From positions 248,001 to 312,000 of the forward strand of contig NZ_RYFF01000001.1 of assembly GCF_004138165.1 (NCBI RefSeq): a DNA stretch of 64,000 nucleotides. The letters run 5' to 3'. Position 1 is the first letter of the stretch, and every line of letters begins with the position of its first letter. A program made the position numbers and the translations under genes. This DNA is from Candidatus Chloroploca sp. Khr17 (GTDB lineage Bacteria; Chloroflexota; Chloroflexia; Chloroflexales; Chloroflexaceae). The notes under the pieces were generated by a model. The model was not told the DNA's origin. It saw nothing but the letters and a program-made list of their open reading frames with translations, and ran no database searches. Positions 48,197 through 57,825 of this stretch are shown piece by piece.

Positions 48197-49210
48197 ATGC
48201 TTGCGGTAAAAACAGTGGCGCAACAGGAACCGGTCGCACCTGCCCACCTGATCATCCGGGATATGGACTATAGCGACGCTGATTATGTCGCTCTGGTTGA
48301 AGTTAGCAATGCCTGTTATCCTGAATATCCTGGCACCATTGATGAGTGGAAGCATGAAGATGCGCATCGCCCGGCCCATCTCAAGTATCGGCGCTGGCTG
48401 GCAGAAGTTGATGGTACCGTTGTCGCCTATGGCAACTATGATCAATTTGAAGCGATGTACAATCCGCGCCTCTTCCATATCTCGGTTGGGGTGCATCCCG
48501 CCTGGCAGCGGCGCGGCATTGGTACTGCTTTCTATCAGGTGATCGTTGATGCGGTGAACGAGTTTGACCCGCTGCGCCTCCGTGCGCGTGCCCGCGAAGA
48601 TTATCAGGCTTCCCTGCGCTTTCTTCAGCAACGGGGGTTTGTTGAGGATCTGCGTGAGTGGGAGTCACGGCTCGATGTCGCGACGTTTGACCCGACACCC
48701 TATCAGGATCACGAGGACAAAGTTCTCACCAGTGGCATACGCATTGCGACGCTTGCCGAGTTGATAGCGACCGATCCCGATCATCGCCAAAACCTTTATG
48801 CGCTTGATGGCGATCTTATGCACGATGTGCCCCATCCCGAACCAGCAACGGGGTTTAGTTACGAGACCTTCGAGCATTTCTATTTCAAGGGGCCAAATCT
48901 CATGCCCGAAGGTGTTTTTGTGGCCCTCGATGGCGATCGCTACGCCGGCCTCAGTGCGCTCTGGAAGAGCCAGGCCGACGCACGTGAATTGTATACCGGT
49001 CTCACCGGTGTCCGTCGTGAGTATCGACGCCGTGGCATTGCCCTGGCCCTCAAGTTACGGGCGATTGAGTTTGCCCGTCTTCGTGATGTCGCGGTCATCA
49101 AGACCTGGAACGAGTCGAATAATCGGCCCATGCTGAGCATCAACGAAGCGCTTGGCTTTGTGAAGCAGCCGGCCTGGGTAAGTTTTGTCAAAACGCTGAA
49201 GGACATATGA
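48197..49210 (+). CDS. Tandem-domain GNAT acetyltransferase (first of a pair)
   Basis: 337 residues with two GNAT domains. The first (about 18-160) has HISVGVHPAWQRRGIGTAFYQVI, the acetyl-CoA loop RRGIGT. The second (about 185-335) has TGLTGVRREYRRRGIALALKLRAIEFAR with RRGIA. NESNNRPMLSINEALGFVKQPAW is the typical GNAT C-terminal strand. Twin GNATs occur in mycothiol synthase and many unassigned enzymes. Its stop overlaps the next GNAT gene (ATGA). Substrate unknown. Confidence 0.88.
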   Translation: MLAVKTVAQQEPVAPAHLIIRDMDYSDADYVALVEVSNACYPEYPGTIDEWKHEDAHRPAHLKYRRWLAEVDGTVVAYGNYDQFEAMYNPRLFHISVGVHPAWQRRGIGTAFYQVIVDAVNEFDPLRLRARAREDYQASLRFLQQRGFVEDLREWESRLDVATFDPTPYQDHEDKVLTSGIRIATLAELIATDPDHRQNLYALDGDLMHDVPHPEPATGFSYETFEHFYFKGPNLMPEGVFVALDGDRYAGLSALWKSQADARELYTGLTGVRREYRRRGIALALKLRAIEFARLRDVAVIKTWNESNNRPMLSINEALGFVKQPAWVSFVKTLKDI

Positions 49211-50172
49211 AGATAACCATCCGCCCTTTTCGCTATGATGAAGCAGATTACGAAGCGTTTGTCACGATTCGCAATGCCGTCTATCTCGACTATCCACATT
49301 CAGTGGCCGAGTGGCGTCGCTGGGACGACAAACGGGAGGAGCGGATGAACTTTCGCCGGTTCATTGCCGAGGCTGATGGGCAACCGGTCGCAAGCGCATT
49401 CTTCGAACACGTCCCGTGGATGTACCATCCGCAGAAATTCTTTGTCAATCTCTTTGTCCATCCAATGCACCGTGGGCAGACGGTGGGGACACAGCTCTAC
49501 CATCATTTGCTGAACGAGCTTGCACCGTATGAGCCGGTGATGTTGCGGCATACGCTGCGCGAAGATCAAGCCGAGGGGATGCGGTTTGCCCAGCGCTATG
49601 GGTTTGTGGAAGAGATGCGCGCCTGGGAATCGCGGCTTGATGTGGCGAGCTTTGATCCTACCCGCTTTGCCGGGGCAGAAGAGCGCGTCCTCAACCAGGG
49701 TTTGACCATCACAACAGCCGAAGATCTGCTCGCCCGCGACCCCCAGTTCTGGCAGAAACTCTATGCGTTTGATTGTGAGGCGTCGGTTGATGTGCCCATG
49801 CCCGAGCCATATACCGCGCCCCCTTTCGAGGTCTGGGTCAGGCATTTTGAGGATAATCCGAGTTTCATCCCTGAAGCCTATTTTGTCGCGGTGGACGGCG
49901 ATATCTATACAGGATCGAGCGCCCTCTGGCGCCGTGACCAGAGTGCTGACCTCGAAACCGGCTTTACGGGTGTCTTGCGGGCCTACCGGCGTCGCGGCAT
50001 TGCCCTCGCGCTCAAGTTGCGGGCGGTGGCCTATGCAAAACAGGTCGGCACACCAGTCATCCGTACTGATAATGAATCAAGCAATCGTCCGATGCTGAGC
50101 ATCAACGAAGCCATGGGTTTTGTGAAACAGCCAGCATGGGTTACACTATGTAAGCAGATGCAAAGCGCGTAA
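49207..50172 (+). CDS. Tandem-domain GNAT acetyltransferase (second of a pair)
   Basis: 321 residues, a clear paralogue of the preceding gene along its length (shared SVAEWRRWDDKREERMNFRRF-type region, FVEEMRAWESRLDVASFDPTRF, and NESSNRPMLSINEAMGFVKQPAW). The first domain's loop reads HPMHRGQTVGTQLYHH, so the RGxG pattern is weakened (RGQTVG), while the second keeps RRRGIALALKLRA. The pair arose by tandem duplication. Four-base overlap implies translational coupling. It is followed 21 bp later by the C45 acyltransferase gene. Confidence 0.87.
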   Translation: MKITIRPFRYDEADYEAFVTIRNAVYLDYPHSVAEWRRWDDKREERMNFRRFIAEADGQPVASAFFEHVPWMYHPQKFFVNLFVHPMHRGQTVGTQLYHHLLNELAPYEPVMLRHTLREDQAEGMRFAQRYGFVEEMRAWESRLDVASFDPTRFAGAEERVLNQGLTITTAEDLLARDPQFWQKLYAFDCEASVDVPMPEPYTAPPFEVWVRHFEDNPSFIPEAYFVAVDGDIYTGSSALWRRDQSADLETGFTGVLRAYRRRGIALALKLRAVAYAKQVGTPVIRTDNESSNRPMLSINEAMGFVKQPAWVTLCKQMQSA

Positions 50173-50193
50173 GGTGCGTTGAGGAGAAGAGTA

Positions 50194-51270
50194 ATGACGC
50201 TGCCCCTGGTGCGGCTGGCAGGAACACCCTATGAGCAGGGCTTTGTACATGGCGAGACGCTCTATGAGCAGATCGAAAATAATCTCGGCGTCTATTTTGC
50301 CCGTTTCGAGCGTGAACTGAAACTTACCCGGGTTGAAACGCTACGGCGTGCCGATCGGTATGCCGAGGAAATCGCCGAACAGTGCCCCGCCTACCACGAA
50401 GGGATGCGGGGCATTGCTGATGGTTCGGGGGTGAGTCTCGCGGCCATTGCCGCCCTGAATGTGCGTTACGAACTCTTTTATGATGAGTTTGCCGAAAAGC
50501 CAATCCCTGATGGGTGTACGGCCTTTGCCCTTTTACCCGAAGCAACAACAACCGGTCACCTGTTGATCGGCGAAAATTGGGATTGGATCGCCGGGGTGCG
50601 CGGGGCGATCATTCATACCGAAGAGACTGATGGTCTGCGGACGCTAGCATTTACCGAAGCAGGCATTTTCGGCGGCAAAATTGGCATGAATAGCGCGGGC
50701 CTGGGCCTGCTGATCAACGGGTTGACCAGTCGCGATGATGATTGGTCGCGGTTGCGTCGCCCCTTTCACGCCCGCTGCTACGAGATCCTGCGCTCGCGGA
50801 CACTGGAAGAAGCGATCCGGGTTGTCCTTGAAGAAGATCGCTCATGCTCGGCCAATTTTGTCCTTGCGCAAACACCTGATCAGGTGCTTGATCTTGAAAC
50901 ATCGCCCGACCGAGCCGGAACGTTGCACTGTCAGGCTGGGTGCCTTGTGCATTCGAATCACTTTGTCAACCCGACCGCCCTCGGCATTGTGGAACGCAAT
51001 GTCGAGACGAATCCGCACTCGCAGCGACGCCATGCCCGCCTGGAACGCCTCTTGCAAGCCCATCGTCCCGTGAGTCTCGCGGATGTGCAGGCCGCACTGC
51101 GCGATCACGAGGGCTATCCCTATTCGGTCTGCTTTCATATTGACCCGAACGAGCCGCCAGAAGAGTTTTATGAAAGTGTGACCTCGTTGGTAATGGATCT
51201 GCAGGCCGGTACGCTGTATGCAACCGATGGGCCACCGTGTGGTACCGACTACGTACTGTATCATTTATAG
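50194..51270 (+). CDS. C45-type acyl-transferase (isopenicillin N acyltransferase-like Ntn hydrolase)
   Basis: 358 residues from the ATG at 50194, GAGGAG upstream. LAGTPYEQGFVHGETLYEQIENN is the N-terminal family signature. IPDGCTAFALLP places the likely nucleophile Cys at the autocleavage point, giving an N-terminal Cys after maturation. GENWDWIAG, IGMNSAGLGLLINGL and LVHSNHFVNP follow the C45 pattern. Such enzymes cleave or form amide bonds between acyl groups and amines. The cluster with two GNATs suggests acyl-amine chemistry, but no pathway can be named. Confidence 0.85.
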   Translation: MTLPLVRLAGTPYEQGFVHGETLYEQIENNLGVYFARFERELKLTRVETLRRADRYAEEIAEQCPAYHEGMRGIADGSGVSLAAIAALNVRYELFYDEFAEKPIPDGCTAFALLPEATTTGHLLIGENWDWIAGVRGAIIHTEETDGLRTLAFTEAGIFGGKIGMNSAGLGLLINGLTSRDDDWSRLRRPFHARCYEILRSRTLEEAIRVVLEEDRSCSANFVLAQTPDQVLDLETSPDRAGTLHCQAGCLVHSNHFVNPTALGIVERNVETNPHSQRRHARLERLLQAHRPVSLADVQAALRDHEGYPYSVCFHIDPNEPPEEFYESVTSLVMDLQAGTLYATDGPPCGTDYVLYHL

Positions 51271-51923: not shown

Positions 51924-53297
51924 ATGGTTAGCAACAAGCCAGCGCGTCTCGTTGCCCATACTGCTGAGTTGGATCAACTCCATGAGCGTCTGGATAATCT
52001 ACAGCGTGGTGCTGTGCCGCTCAGATGCCTGGTCAATCTCTGTGGGGTCTATGGCATTGGCAAACGAACGCTGCTTACGCATCTTGATCAGCGTACGTTG
52101 TTACCTGATGACATTGTCAAGTTGCGTCTGGCATTACCGATCTTGCCACCTTCAGCGCGTTTCGTGCCTCTTGCGCTCAAGCAGGCGCTGCTCGATCAGA
52201 TTGCAGCTTGTCATCCCGCCCTCACGATCTCGCCTGCGCCCATCAATGATCTGAATGCCGATGCGGCCCTGACCGGTCTGGCTGGGCAGTTAATTGAGCA
52301 GAGCACCTGCTGCCTCTTTTTGTTGGATGCAACCGTACGAGGGACGCCAATCGCCTTCAACTGGCTCGAACGCGGATTGCTGCTGCCTCTGGTACGCACT
52401 GATCACGTGATTGCAACGATCATCAGTCGCTCGCCCCTCCGCTGGCGTGAATTTGACACACGACGGCGGGCCGAGATCATGGTGCTTGCCCCGCTGAGCC
52501 TTGAAGAGACGGCCCTGCATCTCCAACTGAGCATCCCTGAGGCCGAGATCATCTATGGCCTGACCAGTGGTTTGCCTCTGGCGAACGAACTTGCGCTTCA
52601 GATGCAGGCTTATTTGCCTGTGCCATCAGAGTGGGAAACGGGCCATAAAGCGGATCTGATGGATCAGATTCTTGATGCACTCTATCAACTAGTTGGGCCG
52701 GATCTCTCCCCCGTGCTCCAGTGTGCGCTTGAAGTTCTGTCAGTCGTACGCGAGTTCTCGGTGCCCTTGATGCAGCGTCTGATCCAGCATACATGCGGTA
52801 CGACAAGTGAAACAGCGCGCCAGACCTTCCTCTTGCTGATGGTCAAACAACTGCAAGAGCTTGATCTGGTGATCTGGGATCAGGCGAGTCTTTCGTATCG
52901 CGTGGCCCCGACGTTACGGCGCATTATCGGTACCTATGTGCGCTATACTGATCCGGAACGGTACGAGGCCATCCGCCAACTTGTCACCGACTACTATCGT
53001 CAAATGTTGGACGAAGTTCTGGTTTCCCGTCACATCCATCTTGTCGAATTTTTGTGGCATCTCCTTGACACACCCATACCCAGCGAGCACCGTCCGGCGC
53101 ATTTGCTGCGTGGTCTGGTGACACGCTATCTAGTCAGCCCCGATGGACGGCAGATTGATGACGAGGAGATGAGTCAATTACAGATGTACCTGGTGACTGA
53201 TCCCGATCTGCCCGCAGTGCTGCGGCGCTACGGAACCCACAGCCAGGAATTGGTTGCCATGCTAGAGGCCCAGCTTTCCAACGACGTTGCTGCATGA
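51924..53297 (+). CDS. STAND-type ATPase with atypical P-loop
   Basis: 457 residues. The N-terminal LVAHTAELDQLHERLDNLQ resembles the entry of a STAND/NACHT-like domain. The P-loop at residues 41-48 reads GVYGIGKR, with Arg where Ser/Thr coordinates magnesium; the Walker B-like CCLFLLDATVRG is near residue 130. LAPLSLEETALHLQLSIPEAEIIYGLTSGLPLANELAL corresponds to the GxP (GLP) helical subdomain of STAND ATPases. The C-terminal part is helical without recognised repeats. ATP hydrolysis may be lost, suggesting a regulatory subunit for the larger STAND protein 16 bp downstream. GGGAGGT precedes the ATG. Confidence 0.75.
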   Translation: MVSNKPARLVAHTAELDQLHERLDNLQRGAVPLRCLVNLCGVYGIGKRTLLTHLDQRTLLPDDIVKLRLALPILPPSARFVPLALKQALLDQIAACHPALTISPAPINDLNADAALTGLAGQLIEQSTCCLFLLDATVRGTPIAFNWLERGLLLPLVRTDHVIATIISRSPLRWREFDTRRRAEIMVLAPLSLEETALHLQLSIPEAEIIYGLTSGLPLANELALQMQAYLPVPSEWETGHKADLMDQILDALYQLVGPDLSPVLQCALEVLSVVREFSVPLMQRLIQHTCGTTSETARQTFLLLMVKQLQELDLVIWDQASLSYRVAPTLRRIIGTYVRYTDPERYEAIRQLVTDYYRQMLDEVLVSRHIHLVEFLWHLLDTPIPSEHRPAHLLRGLVTRYLVSPDGRQIDDEEMSQLQMYLVTDPDLPAVLRRYGTHSQELVAMLEAQLSNDVAA

Positions 53298-53313
53298 ATG
53301 AAGCAAGAACGCT

Positions 53314-56277
53314 ATGATCACTACCCTCGAAGCATATTTTCGCAGTGCCCGTCACCTGGTAGGCCGGAAGCGCGAGCTTGATCTCGTTGATCGGGCCTTG
53401 ACACACGTTAAGGCCGAGAGTTCGGTGTTCTTGATCGAAGGACAAGGGGGGATCGGCAAAACACGGCTGCTGGCCGAGATTCGGCAACGCTGTCGCGAGA
53501 TGAGTGAGGTGCTCTGCACCGAGGTGATTGATCTCTATCTGGGGCGCTATCTTCAGCCTGCCCGCATGCTGTATGCGCTTGCAACGCAACTCGAAGCTGA
53601 TGCCGTGCGTTGGGGGCGGTCGCAACCCGCTTTCACCCGCTTTTATGAAGCGCACGAGCAATTCTATGCGACGCTTGGCCATGACGCTGAAGCGCAACGT
53701 ACCCAACTCGAACAGATCTTTCTTGAATGCTATGCCAAACTGGCCGCTGCGCATCGCCTGGTGGTGTTGATTGACACCTTTGAGAAATTACACCCGGCGC
53801 TAGTGGATGCCCAGGAGTTTGATTTTCGCGAGCTTGGGAGGCTCGAACAGTGGCTGGCGCATCTGCTGAAACGCCTGCCCAATACGATCGTGATCCTCGC
53901 TGGACGCCCGCGGGCCGGTCAACGCAGGATGCTTACCGAGATTCTTGGCTCGATCCTGACCCCATTGACGATTGAGCCTTTTACGCTCACCGAAACGACT
54001 GAGTATATCGCCACTGAATTTGCCAACCTCACACCCCTTGACCCTAAACAGATTCAGTTACTCCATGCGATTAGCGCAGGGCGACCGGTTGTGCTTGCCG
54101 TTGCGCTGGCCTGTGCCCAGCAAGGCATTATTGATATTACGGCGTTGCCGCCCGAGTTTGTCTACCCGGCGAATCAAGCCCATCTCAGTGATGCGTTGGT
54201 GCAGCTGATTGTCGGCGATCTCTATCGGCAACGACCAGATCTGGCCCAGTTGCTTGCCCGTGCTGTCTATTTGCGCAAAGGTGTGCGTCGCGAGATGCTC
54301 GCCTTCCTCTTTGCTGAAGAAGGTGAGGTCGTTGAACCATTTGAACTCGATCAGCAACTCGATGAATTGACCGCTTTTGTGTTTGTCAAGCGGGTTGATG
54401 AGGATGAGCTGATCCTGCATGACGAGATGTACGAGTTGCTGCTGGGGAAACTGGCCGATCAGCAGGCGCTGTCGTGGTGGCGCCTGGCCGTGCAGTTTCT
54501 TGATCAGCAGATTGCGGCGGTCTATACACAACTGCAATCAACAGCTGCAGCCCTGTCGGCACCCTCAAGCTTTGCCAGCCTGCAGCAGCAACTCCAGAAC
54601 CTGCAAATTGAACGTATGTTTTATCATATGTCAATCAATTTGCGCCAGGGCTATCAAATCTATCGCGAGTTGAGCACCAATGCGATTGAGGCCCGCGATG
54701 ATGATTTTGACGCGCAATTACAAGAAGAATTAGCACGTTTCTTTGATCGTGACATGGCATGGGGGCGCCTCTATCGCCAACGCTTGTTGACGAGTGGCCT
54801 GACCTGGGAACGCATCATCTATGATGAAGCCATTCGCTGGGTCTATCGGCGCATGCTCACCCCAATGCCCGGCGGCAATGCATATAGTGCCGCTGTGGCG
54901 CTGGCGGAAGATGTACGGGAACGCTATCGTGCGATCTATGATCGCTCGCCACTAGCACGCTGCGATCTTGATGCCGCCCAGTTGCAGGCCGAGGTCTATA
55001 TCGCCGGGCGCACCTCGCGTGGGGCACAGATTACCCACAACTATCAGGTGCTCGTCGCTGAGCTTGAGACAATCATTGGTCAACTCGATCCGGCTGATCC
55101 AGATGCCGCCTATGCGCAATTTATCCTGGCGAATGCGTATAACTACTGGGGCTATTTTGAACGCGTGCAAGAGCACTTGCAAAGTGCGATTACGAAATAC
55201 AAAGAAGCGCTCCGTCTGTATCGGCAACTCGGCCCCGAGGTCAATAGCCTACACGCAGTAACGCTCAATAATCTAGGCTATGCGATGGGCCGCCAGGGTG
55301 ATTCGGAACGTGGCCTGCGCTGCCTTGATCAGTCGCTCGCCCTGGTTGAACACGCCGGGGTCGCCTACCGCATCGCGACAACGCGCAATACCCAGGCCCA
55401 TCTCTATGCCGATCTTGGCCGGATGGATCAGGCACTTCGTTGCGTCCAGGAGGCTCGACGGCTCTTTGCCCGCTTTGAGAGCGTCCGGGCCACCGCCCTC
55501 AATGCGAATGCCGAAGGCCGTATCCGCAGTCGCATTGCCGAGACAATGGCCGATCCTGGGCAACGCAATGCCGAGTATGCCCGTGCAGTGGCGGCCTATC
55601 GTCAAGCCATCAAAGGTTTTGATCAAGAGGGCGAGCTTGTGCGCCAAATCGAGGTACGCAGTGCCCTGGCCAAAGCGTTGCGCAATTGGGCGACCAACAT
55701 GCCCCCCGGGCCAGCGGTGACAACCAGGCGCAATGAGGCCTTTGCATTGCTGACCGAAGCCAATACCCTAACGAATGAGACCACGTCGCGGCTGATTCGC
55801 TGTAGCATCCTTGAGGCAATGGCCGCGATCTGTGTGGACGAAAAGCGCTATGATGAAGCGATCACCCTGCTTGAAGAAGCCTGCTCGCTCTTGCCAGCAA
55901 GTTTGCAGGATCCCATGCGCTACGGTGAGTCTTCGGAAACCGTAGAATTGCGGCTCTATTGGCTGCGTTTTGCCCAGATCCAATGGCAGTATGCGGCAGT
56001 CGCCTTTGGTCAGGCGCATTATCACGATGCGTGTCTGCATCTCGTGCATACCTTTACCGGCCTGCTGGCCTTCTCGCCAGATGCCGCCCCCATCGAACGA
56101 TTCCGCCATCTGGCACGCCGTGCGCTCACCGCACCGGGTGATCCGGCGCTGATCGAAGCACTGCGCGAACCGATGCACCAGGCCGCCGCTCAGAGTAGCG
56201 CCTCGATTTCGGCCCTTTCGCTCGTTGATCGCTTGCTCACTCAGGCAATTGAAGATATTGACCTCTTTGGAGCGTGA
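53314..56277 (+). CDS. Large STAND ATPase with C-terminal TPR array
   Basis: 987 residues. HLVGRKRELDLVDRALTHVKAESSVFLIEGQGGIGKTRLLAEIRQRC holds an intact Walker A (GQGGIGKT, 43-50). Walker B is RLVVLIDTFEKLHPALVDAQEF near 150. LLHAISAGRPVVLAVAL is the GxP motif near 265. Residues about 420-560 are helical and residues about 590-970 form TPR-like repeats (AVTLNNLGYAMGRQGDSERGLRCLDQSLALVEHAG, TRNTQAHLYADLGRMDQALRCVQEARRLF). This is the switch-plus-sensor layout of STAND proteins such as MalT or FxsT-like regulators, but no DNA-binding domain is present. It lies between the smaller STAND gene and a radical SAM gene. Confidence 0.85.
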   Translation: MITTLEAYFRSARHLVGRKRELDLVDRALTHVKAESSVFLIEGQGGIGKTRLLAEIRQRCREMSEVLCTEVIDLYLGRYLQPARMLYALATQLEADAVRWGRSQPAFTRFYEAHEQFYATLGHDAEAQRTQLEQIFLECYAKLAAAHRLVVLIDTFEKLHPALVDAQEFDFRELGRLEQWLAHLLKRLPNTIVILAGRPRAGQRRMLTEILGSILTPLTIEPFTLTETTEYIATEFANLTPLDPKQIQLLHAISAGRPVVLAVALACAQQGIIDITALPPEFVYPANQAHLSDALVQLIVGDLYRQRPDLAQLLARAVYLRKGVRREMLAFLFAEEGEVVEPFELDQQLDELTAFVFVKRVDEDELILHDEMYELLLGKLADQQALSWWRLAVQFLDQQIAAVYTQLQSTAAALSAPSSFASLQQQLQNLQIERMFYHMSINLRQGYQIYRELSTNAIEARDDDFDAQLQEELARFFDRDMAWGRLYRQRLLTSGLTWERIIYDEAIRWVYRRMLTPMPGGNAYSAAVALAEDVRERYRAIYDRSPLARCDLDAAQLQAEVYIAGRTSRGAQITHNYQVLVAELETIIGQLDPADPDAAYAQFILANAYNYWGYFERVQEHLQSAITKYKEALRLYRQLGPEVNSLHAVTLNNLGYAMGRQGDSERGLRCLDQSLALVEHAGVAYRIATTRNTQAHLYADLGRMDQALRCVQEARRLFARFESVRATALNANAEGRIRSRIAETMADPGQRNAEYARAVAAYRQAIKGFDQEGELVRQIEVRSALAKALRNWATNMPPGPAVTTRRNEAFALLTEANTLTNETTSRLIRCSILEAMAAICVDEKRYDEAITLLEEACSLLPASLQDPMRYGESSETVELRLYWLRFAQIQWQYAAVAFGQAHYHDACLHLVHTFTGLLAFSPDAAPIERFRHLARRALTAPGDPALIEALREPMHQAAAQSSASISALSLVDRLLTQAIEDIDLFGA

Positions 56278-56343
56278 TGGAATTGCAATTTCTCACGTTT
56301 AATTGAGGTAGAACAAGGAAAATCTTCAGTTGTGTGAGTATGC

Positions 56344-57771
56344 ATGCATTCCATAGCACACATTTTGGTGCCAGAACAAACCTCGGTAGCGCTTAATGAC
56401 TGCCGCTTGCCGTTGCCAGTCTATGTACAAGCACCCACGGGGACCAAGGATGACCTGGCAATCCACCGCCTGCGTCCACATCCTTTGCTCACAACGCTGG
56501 ATCTGGATGATGGGGAACATGTCGTCGCATTTGTCCCATCCTTGAGCCAGGTAGCTGTGTTGAATCAAGCAGCCCTGGCGCTGATCCAGCGCTTGCCGCT
56601 CACCGAGGCCGCCGAGGCCGCCGAGGTGTCTGGTGCGCTGGTGCGGCTCGTCGAGATGGGATTGCTGGTTACGACCGACAGCCCGACGTTGCCACGTCCT
56701 GCCGAGCCAACGACGCTGGTGGCATGGCTGCATCTCACCAATGCATGTAACCTGCGTTGTACCTATTGCTATATCGAAAAGAACCATGAGGCAATGAGCC
56801 TTGCAACGGCATATCAGGCGGTTGAGGCAAGCATTGCCGCAGCCCAACGCCACGGCTATCGCGAGCTTGCCCTGAAGTATGCAGGTGGTGAGCCATTGCT
56901 GGCGTTTGATACCCTGGTTGCAACCCACCAGTATGCACAGGAGCAGTGTGCCGCCGCGGGCCTTGGCCTTGCGGCAACCGTGCTGACGAATGGCACTGGT
57001 TTGACAGCGCCGCGCGTGGCGCGTTTGCGCGAATTGGGCCTGGACGTGACTGTTTCACTTGATGGTGCCGCTATCAGCAATGACCAGCAGCGTCCAATGT
57101 GCAACGGCACTGGCTCAACGAAGGCCATTATGGCTGGGCTTGAACGCGCACAGGTGGGAGGGCTCAAACCCGCTGTTGCCTTGACGATCACCAGCACCAG
57201 TCTGGCAGGCGTGCCCGAACTCGTGGCGTGGCTGCTCGAACGTGACCTGCCTTTTACGCTGAGCTTTGCCCGTGATCACACCTGCGGCCGCAGTCATCGT
57301 GACCTGCTGGCCGATGAAGCGGCCCTGATCGAAGGTATGCGGACAATCTATGCCACGGTTGCGGCCAACCCACCTTCGTGGAGTCTGCTTGGTGCCTTGT
57401 TGGATCGTACCGATCTCTCGCATGCACATGGGCATGCCTGTGCCGCTGGATCACACTATCTGGTCATTGATCATCACGGTCGTATCGCCGCATGCCAGAT
57501 GGCGCAACATATGCCCGTTGCTGATATCTACCACGAAGATCCCCTTGGGGCAATTCGCCATGACGAGCGTTTGCCGCTAGGTCGCCACGTCGACACCAAA
57601 GAGGGCTGTCGCACCTGTGTGTGGCGCTACTGGTGTGGTGGAGGATGCCCGCTCGCGACCCTACGGGCAACCGGACGCACCGATATCCAATCCCCCGATT
57701 GCAACATCTACCAAGCCCTCTACCCCGACCTGTTACGCCTCGAAGGATTACGCCTGCTGCACCAGCGCTGA
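56344..57771 (+). CDS. Radical SAM/SPASM peptide- or protein-modifying enzyme with RRE-like N-terminus
   Basis: 475 residues. Residues about 55-110 look like a PqqD/RRE winged-helix (VVAFVPSLSQVAVLNQAALALIQRL...LVEMGLL), which recruits a precursor peptide. The radical SAM cluster is C135-x3-C139-x2-C142 (LTNACNLRCTYCYIEK); KYAGGEPLL is the GGE motif. The SPASM region starts near 365 (HACAAGSHYLVIDHHGRIAACQ) and includes EGCRTCVWRYWCGGGCP and a final Cys in QSPDCN, enough for auxiliary clusters. Such enzymes make thioether, C-C or cyclophane links in RiPPs or mature proteins. No precursor peptide is visible nearby. No good ribosome site precedes the ATG; coupling to the STAND gene 66 bp upstream is uncertain. 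Confidence 0.9.
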   Translation: MHSIAHILVPEQTSVALNDCRLPLPVYVQAPTGTKDDLAIHRLRPHPLLTTLDLDDGEHVVAFVPSLSQVAVLNQAALALIQRLPLTEAAEAAEVSGALVRLVEMGLLVTTDSPTLPRPAEPTTLVAWLHLTNACNLRCTYCYIEKNHEAMSLATAYQAVEASIAAAQRHGYRELALKYAGGEPLLAFDTLVATHQYAQEQCAAAGLGLAATVLTNGTGLTAPRVARLRELGLDVTVSLDGAAISNDQQRPMCNGTGSTKAIMAGLERAQVGGLKPAVALTITSTSLAGVPELVAWLLERDLPFTLSFARDHTCGRSHRDLLADEAALIEGMRTIYATVAANPPSWSLLGALLDRTDLSHAHGHACAAGSHYLVIDHHGRIAACQMAQHMPVADIYHEDPLGAIRHDERLPLGRHVDTKEGCRTCVWRYWCGGGCPLATLRATGRTDIQSPDCNIYQALYPDLLRLEGLRLLHQR

Positions 57772-57778
57772 AGATGCG

Positions 57779-57825
57779 TACGGACACGAAAAAAGCCAGC
57801 AATGCTGGCTTTTTTCGTGTCCGTA
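57779..57825 (+). terminator. Perfect 22-bp hairpin terminator after the radical SAM gene
   Basis: Arms 57779-57800 and 57804-57825 around AAT, with the GCCAGC / GCTGGC core and a T6 tract inside the descending arm. It ends the STAND/radical SAM cluster 7 bp after the stop. Confidence 0.8.

What the first reader, a model, noticed from the sequence alone, without database searches (positions are those of the whole stretch)
51924..57771. Candidate undescribed system: two STAND ATPases plus an RRE-type radical SAM/SPASM enzyme
Three same-strand genes, closed by a strong terminator, encode a STAND ATPase with a non-standard P-loop (GVYGIGKR), a 987-residue STAND ATPase with TPRs, and a SPASM radical SAM enzyme with a PqqD-like N-terminus. 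A damaged ATPase beside an intact one suggests a regulator/switch pair. TPR-STAND proteins with radical SAM maturases are known from the actinobacterial Fxs RiPP loci, but the pieces here differ and no FxSxx precursor is seen. It may be a ligand-gated peptide- or protein-modifying system.
Basis: partly seen in the sequence, partly recalled or inferred. Interest (0 to 1): 0.75.

Follow-up and report, generated by a model that had tools for sequence, protein, structure and literature searches.

The report
Immune-like ATPase module with peptide-modifying enzyme
Three neighbouring genes in a Chloroploca-type bacterium are the small form of a gene module found in several Chloroflexota families: two immune-receptor-like ATPases and a radical enzyme that may carry its own short cysteine-rich substrate peptide as a tail, which would couple danger sensing to peptide modification.

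Summary
The three genes are real and belong together. In Chloroflexota the radical SAM/SPASM protein has a homologue of the 987-aa TPR-STAND protein within 2 kb in 57 of 59 loci with at least 1 kb of upstream sequence. Other copies add AAA-ATPases, some with a C-terminal winged helix, and variable conflict-type partners or fusions: CHAT, TIR, SIR2, nucleoside phosphorylase, trypsin, EAD7.

New here: the enzyme's otherwise variable N-terminus carries Asp-Cys motifs in varying number (NDCR; DCDCACP; ETDCF..ETDCACP; GQCDCS x4; DCAC x4): 97 DC pairs against 18 expected and at most 33 in 2000 shuffles. No separate precursor was found, and the best-scoring maturase model (PapB, far below its cut-off) makes Cys-Asp/Glu thioethers. 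I propose that the substrate peptide is fused to its own maturase.

Corrections: the damaged-P-loop switch fails (GKR only in the three Chloroploca copies; 37 of 47 STAND1 homologues show GKS/GKT, 7 unmatched by the pattern). The RRE is unproven. No effector was recognised beside the window copy, and two STAND pairs have no such enzyme beside them. All function is inferred; nothing was assayed.

The parts
51924..53297 (+). STAND1: 457-aa P-loop protein, the subunit that carries fused effector domains (TIR, trypsin, CHAT) in some relatives; none recognised here
   Evidence: ORF; homologues; fusions in relatives
52044..52067 (+). STAND1 P-loop GVYGIGKR (R where most relatives have S/T)
   Evidence: R only in the three Chloroploca copies of 47 listed
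53314..56277 (+). STAND2: 987-aa NACHT/AAA_16 ATPase with C-terminal TPRs, probable sensor (role inferred)
   Evidence: homologue within 2 kb of the rSAM in 57 of 59 loci
53440..53463 (+). STAND2 intact P-loop GQGGIGKT
56344..57771 (+). radical SAM/SPASM enzyme with N-terminal Asp-Cys tail
56344..56469 (+). variable N-terminal tail, candidate fused core peptide (residues 1-42)
56395..56403 (+). Asn-Asp-Cys motif (residues 18-20), invariant in the tails of the six nearest relatives aligned
56470..56679 (+). RRE-like segment by pattern only (residues 43-112); unproven
56746..56769 (+). CNLRCTYC radical SAM cluster motif
   Evidence: its three cysteines are invariant
57439..57702 (+). SPASM-type cysteine region (C366 to C453)
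   Evidence: cysteines invariant in 32 sequences
57779..57825 (.). perfect 23-nt inverted repeat with T6, terminator

Best explanation
The locus is a minimal copy of a Chloroflexota NTP-dependent conflict (immunity / controlled-suicide) module. STAND2 probably senses an invader or damage signal through its TPRs and assembles with STAND1, the subunit to which effector domains are fused in some relatives (inferred from architecture). The SPASM radical SAM enzyme modifies a Cys-containing peptide; the best candidate substrate is its own N-terminal tail, whose Asp-Cys motifs it would cross-link (most likely Cys thioethers, by analogy with PapB). The modified tail then licenses, tunes or signals to the STAND complex. 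Shown by sequence: the gene unit, effector domains in relatives, the motif-rich tail, and no separate precursor found. Inferred: self-modification, its chemistry, and its role in signalling.
For: A STAND2 homologue lies within 2 kb of the rSAM in 57 of 59 loci; in the 25 loci not used to build the profiles, in 21 of the 22 with at least 1 kb upstream. Control: of 17 regions around the other 17 radical SAM genes of the same genome, none has a STAND2 hit and one has a STAND1 hit of 49 bits. STAND1 and STAND2 are one chain in L124. Above-cut-off partners: STAND1-CHAT (L113), TIR-STAND1 (L115; STAND1 part weak, 23 bits), trypsin-STAND1 (L070), TIR gene with sub-threshold SIR2 (L111), SIR2 gene and phosphorylase gene (L116), CHAT gene several kb upstream on the other strand (L048); phosphorylase gene with sub-threshold SIR2 (L123), EAD7 (L068), KAP (L055). 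Tail: of 55 N-terminal regions 49 have DC and 53 have DC or EC; 97 DC against a shuffle mean of 18.2, maximum 33; 0 of 16 other rSAM proteins of the genome have DC there. Motifs stay while flanks change, and copy number varies. In 12 genomes chosen because their rSAM encodes DCACP, 15 of 51 DCACP-encoding places are in that rSAM; of the other 36, 33 overlap a longer open frame in another reading frame. PapB accepts Cys-Xn-Asp with n=0-6 (PMC9413430, abstract and section 7 read).
Against: No activity is known. PapB score 130 of 340 needed. Asp precedes Cys here, whereas PapB joins Cys to a following Asp, and n=0 and n=6 substrates reacted incompletely. The window tail has a single Cys. L117 has no DC or EC in its N-terminal region. 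No effector was recognised beside the window copy and no AAA hit lies within 11 kb upstream. L044 and L125 have the rSAM without STAND beside it; L210 and L212 have the STAND pair without this rSAM beside it. Three of the 36 other DCACP places are not explained by a longer overlapping frame (L144, L151, L180). The shuffle test ignores shared descent, and the DC control is crude and from one genome. Conflict role rests on domains in relatives, not on a test.
Confidence: 0.5

Rival explanations
1. The Asp-Cys tail is not a substrate but a metal or Fe-S ligand set, or a redox tail, of the enzyme, which modifies some other peptide or protein.
For: Cys and Asp are good metal ligands (general knowledge); the tail stays with the rSAM where STANDs are absent from the locus (L044, L125).
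Against: Motif number, spacing and position vary, in L109 with two DCAC also between the RRE-like part and the catalytic domain; the window tail has one Cys. A fixed cluster site would not be expected to vary so.
Confidence: 0.2
2. The rSAM modifies a separate substrate (a small protein coded elsewhere, or a STAND subunit), and the tail is a pseudosubstrate that occupies the active site until STAND activation removes it.
For: rSAM RiPP maturases usually act on a separate peptide (recalled); small membrane-like ORFs lie beside some copies.
Against: Clustering of small ORFs in and around the cores of 38 loci found no family shared beyond a few related genomes; no convincing second DCACP gene in 12 genomes. 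A precursor without this motif, coded elsewhere, is not excluded.
Confidence: 0.2
3. Not a conflict system: a STAND-based transcriptional or developmental regulator.
For: AAA partners with a Trans_reg_C-like end (above cut-off in L060, below in L109) could bind DNA; no effector was recognised beside the window copy.
Against: TIR, CHAT, trypsin, SIR2, phosphorylase and EAD7 partners or fusions in relatives are of the kinds described for conflict systems (PMC7159879, passages read).
Confidence: 0.15

Closest known systems
FxSxx-COOH / VMAP ternary peptide-processing systems (Kaur et al. 2020, PMC7159879, passages read)
   Same: Radical SAM/SPASM enzyme coupled to an AP-ATPase with TPRs in a predicted conflict system; [quoted passage not shown]
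   Different: No separate FxSxx-like precursor was found; two STANDs, AAA partners and a Cys-rich tail on the enzyme itself. FxsB is matched by fewer homologues and less strongly than PapB. Zincin peptidase and MoxR-vWA/VMAP were not searched for.
PapB-type ranthipeptide maturases (NF047865)
   Same: Best NCBIfam model of the window protein; PapB joins Cys to Asp/Glu (PMC9413430).
   Different: 130 bits against a cut-off of 340; [quoted passage not shown] here Asp-Cys motifs sit on the enzyme.
Borosin methyltransferases (recalled; PMC8429565 seen in a search listing only)
   Same: A core peptide can be fused to its own modifying enzyme (recalled).
   Different: Methyltransferase with a C-terminal core (recalled); here radical SAM, N-terminal tail, STAND partners.
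iSTAND ternary systems (PMC7159879, passages read)
   Same: A STAND relative in a system with variable effectors and EADs.
   Different: The iSTAND is catalytically inactive, whereas 37 of 47 STAND1 homologues show GKS/GKT; a MoxR-vWA pair was not searched for here.

Membership tests
FxSxx/VMAP peptide-processing system | separate small precursor gene | tested here: not met
   no small-ORF family shared beyond a few related genomes in and around the cores of 38 loci; the FxSxx motif itself was not searched for
FxSxx/VMAP peptide-processing system | FxsB-type rSAM/SPASM | tested here: not met
   FxsB model matched by 26 of 32 homologues at E<=1e-10 (best 1.5e-18) against PapB 32 of 32 (best 2.5e-41); not among the 25 best models of the window protein
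FxSxx/VMAP peptide-processing system | MoxR-vWA pair, VMAP and zincin peptidase | not tested
   no dedicated search; none appeared among the 20 proteins of other loci scanned with Pfam
Ranthipeptide maturase PapB | NCBIfam NF047865 above cut-off 340 | tested here: not met
   130.1 bits
Ranthipeptide maturase PapB | Cys-to-Asp/Glu thioether formation | not testable with these tools
   needs reconstituted enzyme and mass spectrometry
Radical SAM/SPASM protein | CxxxCxxC and C-terminal SPASM cysteines | tested here: met
   SPASM Pfam score below cut-off, cysteines invariant in 32
STAND NTPase (STAND2) | AAA_16/NACHT-type P-loop NTPase with C-terminal repeats | tested here: met
   both above cut-off, TPRs
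STAND NTPase (STAND1) | recognisable P-loop NTPase domain | tested here: inconclusive
   no meaningful Pfam hit for the window copy; homologues with GKS/GKT and AAA_22 above cut-off in L070, below in L115
RRE (PqqD-like) domain | PqqD/RRE match or RRE fold | tested here: inconclusive
   0 of 35 PqqD hits; RiPP-recognition protein only at E 0.3; model pLDDT 43
Known anti-phage system | specific PADLOC model hit | tested here: not met
   STAND1 none, STAND2 three hits at E 0.03-0.04, rSAM prokaryotic-viperin models at 4.8e-15 over residues 129-248 only, read as the shared radical SAM fold
NTP-dependent conflict systems, broad sense | NTPase switch plus variable effectors and EADs | tested here: inconclusive
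   met in relatives; no effector recognised beside the window copy

The most novel reading that the evidence does not exclude
A radical SAM peptide maturase that carries its own core peptide as a multi-motif N-terminal tail and modifies itself, with two STAND receptors reading or releasing that modified tail as the alarm of a suicide/immunity module: enzyme and signal in one polypeptide.
Probability: 0.35. Interest if true: 0.9.

Novelty: new variant of a known kind. Interest (0 to 1): 0.72.

Why it matters
It would link peptide-modifying radical chemistry to STAND immune-like receptors in bacteria in a form that can be tested with one purified protein, and would give a RiPP-type pathway in which precursor and radical maturase are one chain. 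It also gives a searchable module (AAA partners, STAND1, STAND2, rSAM with DC tail) in several Chloroflexota families for defence-system tests.

Tried and rejected
Separate precursor: small-ORF clustering in and up to 3 kb around the cores of 38 loci gave low-complexity matches, overlaps shared by the three Chloroploca genomes, and two families of small membrane-like ORFs in four and three related genomes. A DCACP pattern in 12 genomes gave 36 places outside the rSAM; 33 overlap a longer open frame in another reading frame, three do not; some recur in sister genomes. Damaged-ATPase switch: rejected as a lineage quirk. RRE proof: three tests inconclusive. AlphaFold with three near-identical sequences gave pLDDT 43, so no fold search was run. 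Viral and plasmid carriage: the viral relatives that cover most of the protein are about 22-27% identical (80 of 168 listed); none in plasmids at 1e-20. Print: paper searches listed no paper that, by title, abstract start or the passages I opened, describes this module or an rSAM fused to its precursor; lists were capped (20 shown of 61 and of 48) and the library holds open-licence papers only.

Rows dropped before counts: in the tail statistic seven of 63 loci were left out by name (L041, L042, L043, L044, L074, L076, which carry NDC, and the truncated L077), and L075 (which has DC) because its frame is open-ended: 55 remain. The regions counted include the RRE-like segment, up to the first W[LMVIF][HQ]. 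L069 counts as lacking DC only because an inner start codon was picked; its frame upstream reads FPETDCACP. In the linkage count four of 63 loci with under 1 kb upstream were set aside. The short G025 contig (L038) was not among the 63. In the DC control one of 17 regions gave no ORF.
Full report
What is there. The window comes from a Candidatus Chloroploca-type genome: the two relatives found among named genomes are Ca. Chloroploca mongolica and asiatica, whose rSAM proteins are 95% identical, and the genome search places both as same genus. Three same-strand genes lie between pth and a gene that looks by eye like a transporter binding protein: STAND1 (457 aa), STAND2 (987 aa) and a radical SAM/SPASM protein (475 aa), gaps 16 and 66 bp, closed by a perfect 23-nt inverted repeat with a T-run. 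Promoter-like sites were not above chance (2 found, 3.7 expected) and terminator-like sites hardly (8 found, 6.0 expected), so no promoter is claimed.

The genes are a unit. The rSAM was found in 31 of 61 genomes, the window's own included (E<=1e-30), and by profile in 44 of 400 Chloroflexota genomes (E<=1e-60), 20 of 224 genera, in the coded families f1, f4, f13, f24, f45 and f68. I analysed 63 loci including the window. Of the 59 with at least 1 kb upstream, 57 have a STAND2 homologue within 2 kb of the rSAM; of the 53 with at least 4.5 kb upstream, 46 have a separate STAND1 hit within 7 kb; of the 30 with at least 9 kb upstream, 18 have an AAA hit within 9.5 kb. The STAND and AAA profiles were built from the first batch of loci; in the second batch of 25, 21 of the 22 with enough sequence have STAND2. 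Some STAND1 misses are fusions or weak: TIR-STAND1 in L115, and STAND1 and STAND2 as one chain in L124. In seven loci (L060-L063, L065, L066, L069) STAND2 lies convergent to the rSAM. As a control, 17 regions around the other 17 radical SAM genes of the same genome contain no STAND2 hit and one STAND1 hit of 49 bits.

Exceptions. L044 and L125 have the rSAM but no STAND beside it. In the reverse search, 25 STAND1 matches at E<=1e-40 appear in the 61 genomes: 18 are on a contig with this rSAM, 3 are cut by a contig end, 2 were not fetched, and 2 have the STAND pair without it: L210 in G014, and L212 in G024, where only 1 kb remains to the contig end.

What kind of system. Relatives carry domains known from bacterial conflict systems. 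Above Pfam cut-off: CHAT fused to STAND1 (L113), TIR at the N-terminus of the STAND1-position protein (L115), trypsin fused to STAND1 (L070), a TIR gene upstream (L111), a SIR2 gene upstream and a phosphorylase gene downstream (L116), a CHAT gene several kb upstream on the other strand (L048); EAD7 next to the rSAM (L068), KAP NTPase (L055), FGE-sulfatase domain (L064), phosphorylase (L123). Below cut-off: SIR2 in L111, L112 and L123, TIR in L112. AAA partners can end in a Trans_reg_C-like winged helix (above cut-off in L060, below in L109). I scanned 20 such proteins, chosen by eye, not every neighbour. Kaur et al. 2020 (PMC7159879, passages read) describe conflict systems built from NTPases, EADs and such effectors, including rSAM/SPASM enzymes predicted to modify FxSxx peptides next to AP-ATPase-TPR proteins. 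The present module follows that grammar with different parts. PADLOC gave no specific model. No effector was recognised beside the window copy: pth and the acyltransferase gene were scanned, the other neighbours read by eye; no AAA hit lies within 11 kb upstream. The genome has 13 CHAT matches, none in the window, so a partner in trans is possible but unproven.

The tail. The catalytic part of the enzyme is well conserved; the N-terminus is not, except for Asp-Cys motifs: NDCR in the window and near relatives; three DCR/DCH repeats (L045, L047, L048); DCDCACP-like motifs (L050-L054, L057-L059) and DCACP (L056); ETDCF...ETDCACP (L060, L061, L063, L065, L066); four GQCDCS (L067); two GDCACDSP (L125); four DCAC, two of them between the RRE-like segment and the catalytic domain (L109); GGCDGDCACS (L128, L130, L131; similar in L132); and NEC/DEC in family f24, Ktedonobacteria-like by my reading. 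In 55 N-terminal regions there are 97 DC pairs against a shuffle mean of 18.2, maximum 33 in 2000 shuffles; 49 of 55 have DC, 53 of 55 have DC or EC, 33 of 55 have two or more DC. None of 16 other rSAM proteins of the same genome has DC before its cluster motif; 3 have EC. Copies without the RRE-like segment (L067, L070, L073) keep the motif. No conserved small ORF stands in for a precursor. In 12 genomes, chosen because their rSAM encodes DCACP, 15 of 51 DCACP-encoding places are in that gene; of the other 36, 33 overlap a longer open frame in another reading frame and 3 do not.

Mechanism. Among NCBIfam models, all 32 homologues match PapB, Nif11-peptide, SCIFF, Cys-rich-peptide and other maturases, and also some non-peptide radical SAM families (NirJ2, sulfatase maturase); for the window protein every score shown is far below cut-off. 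PapB forms Cys-to-Asp/Glu thioethers and accepts Cys-Xn-Asp with n=0-6, n=0 and n=6 incompletely (PMC9413430, abstract and section 7). I therefore commit to: the enzyme modifies its own tail, most likely by thioether formation at Asp-Cys motifs, and STAND1/STAND2 use or control that tail. Shown: the unit, conflict-type partners in relatives, the motif tail. Inferred: self-modification, chemistry, signalling.

The GKR P-loop is confirmed but is found only in the three Chloroploca copies among 47 STAND1 homologues; 37 have GKS or GKT and 7 were not matched by the simple pattern. The RRE is not proven.

Novelty. My paper searches listed no description of this module or of an rSAM fused to its substrate; lists were capped and the library is limited to open-licence papers. 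I file it as a new variant of a known kind (NTP-dependent conflict systems with a peptide-modifying arm), with the fused-substrate reading as the bolder case.

Noticed in passing
L066:10636-11437: Three near-identical tandem small ORFs (71-89 aa) on the - strand between the rSAM and STAND2 genes; perhaps a DNA repeat.
   Followed up: partly
L061, L063, L065, L069 (- strand, upstream of the rSAM) and L054, L057, L059 (downstream): Small membrane-like ORFs beside the module in a few related genomes.
   Followed up: partly
window 48197-51270: Two tandem GNAT-like genes (by eye) and a C45-family autoproteolytic acyltransferase gene (NF040521) upstream of pth; gene order shared with the other two Chloroploca genomes.
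   Followed up: no
G000 genome-wide: Thirteen CHAT matches in this one genome; the same search rings in one of 14 control genomes.
   Followed up: no
L125:8997-10466 (+): A stand-alone rSAM of this family among housekeeping-like genes (by eye), with two GDCACDSP repeats and no STAND nearby.
   Followed up: partly
L111, L112, L116, L123: SIR2-, TIR- and phosphorylase-type genes flank the module in family f24.
   Followed up: partly
L151, L162, L170, L171: A DCACPRRFNL stretch recurs at four places of one genome (G042), probably a repeated element rather than a precursor gene.
   Followed up: no
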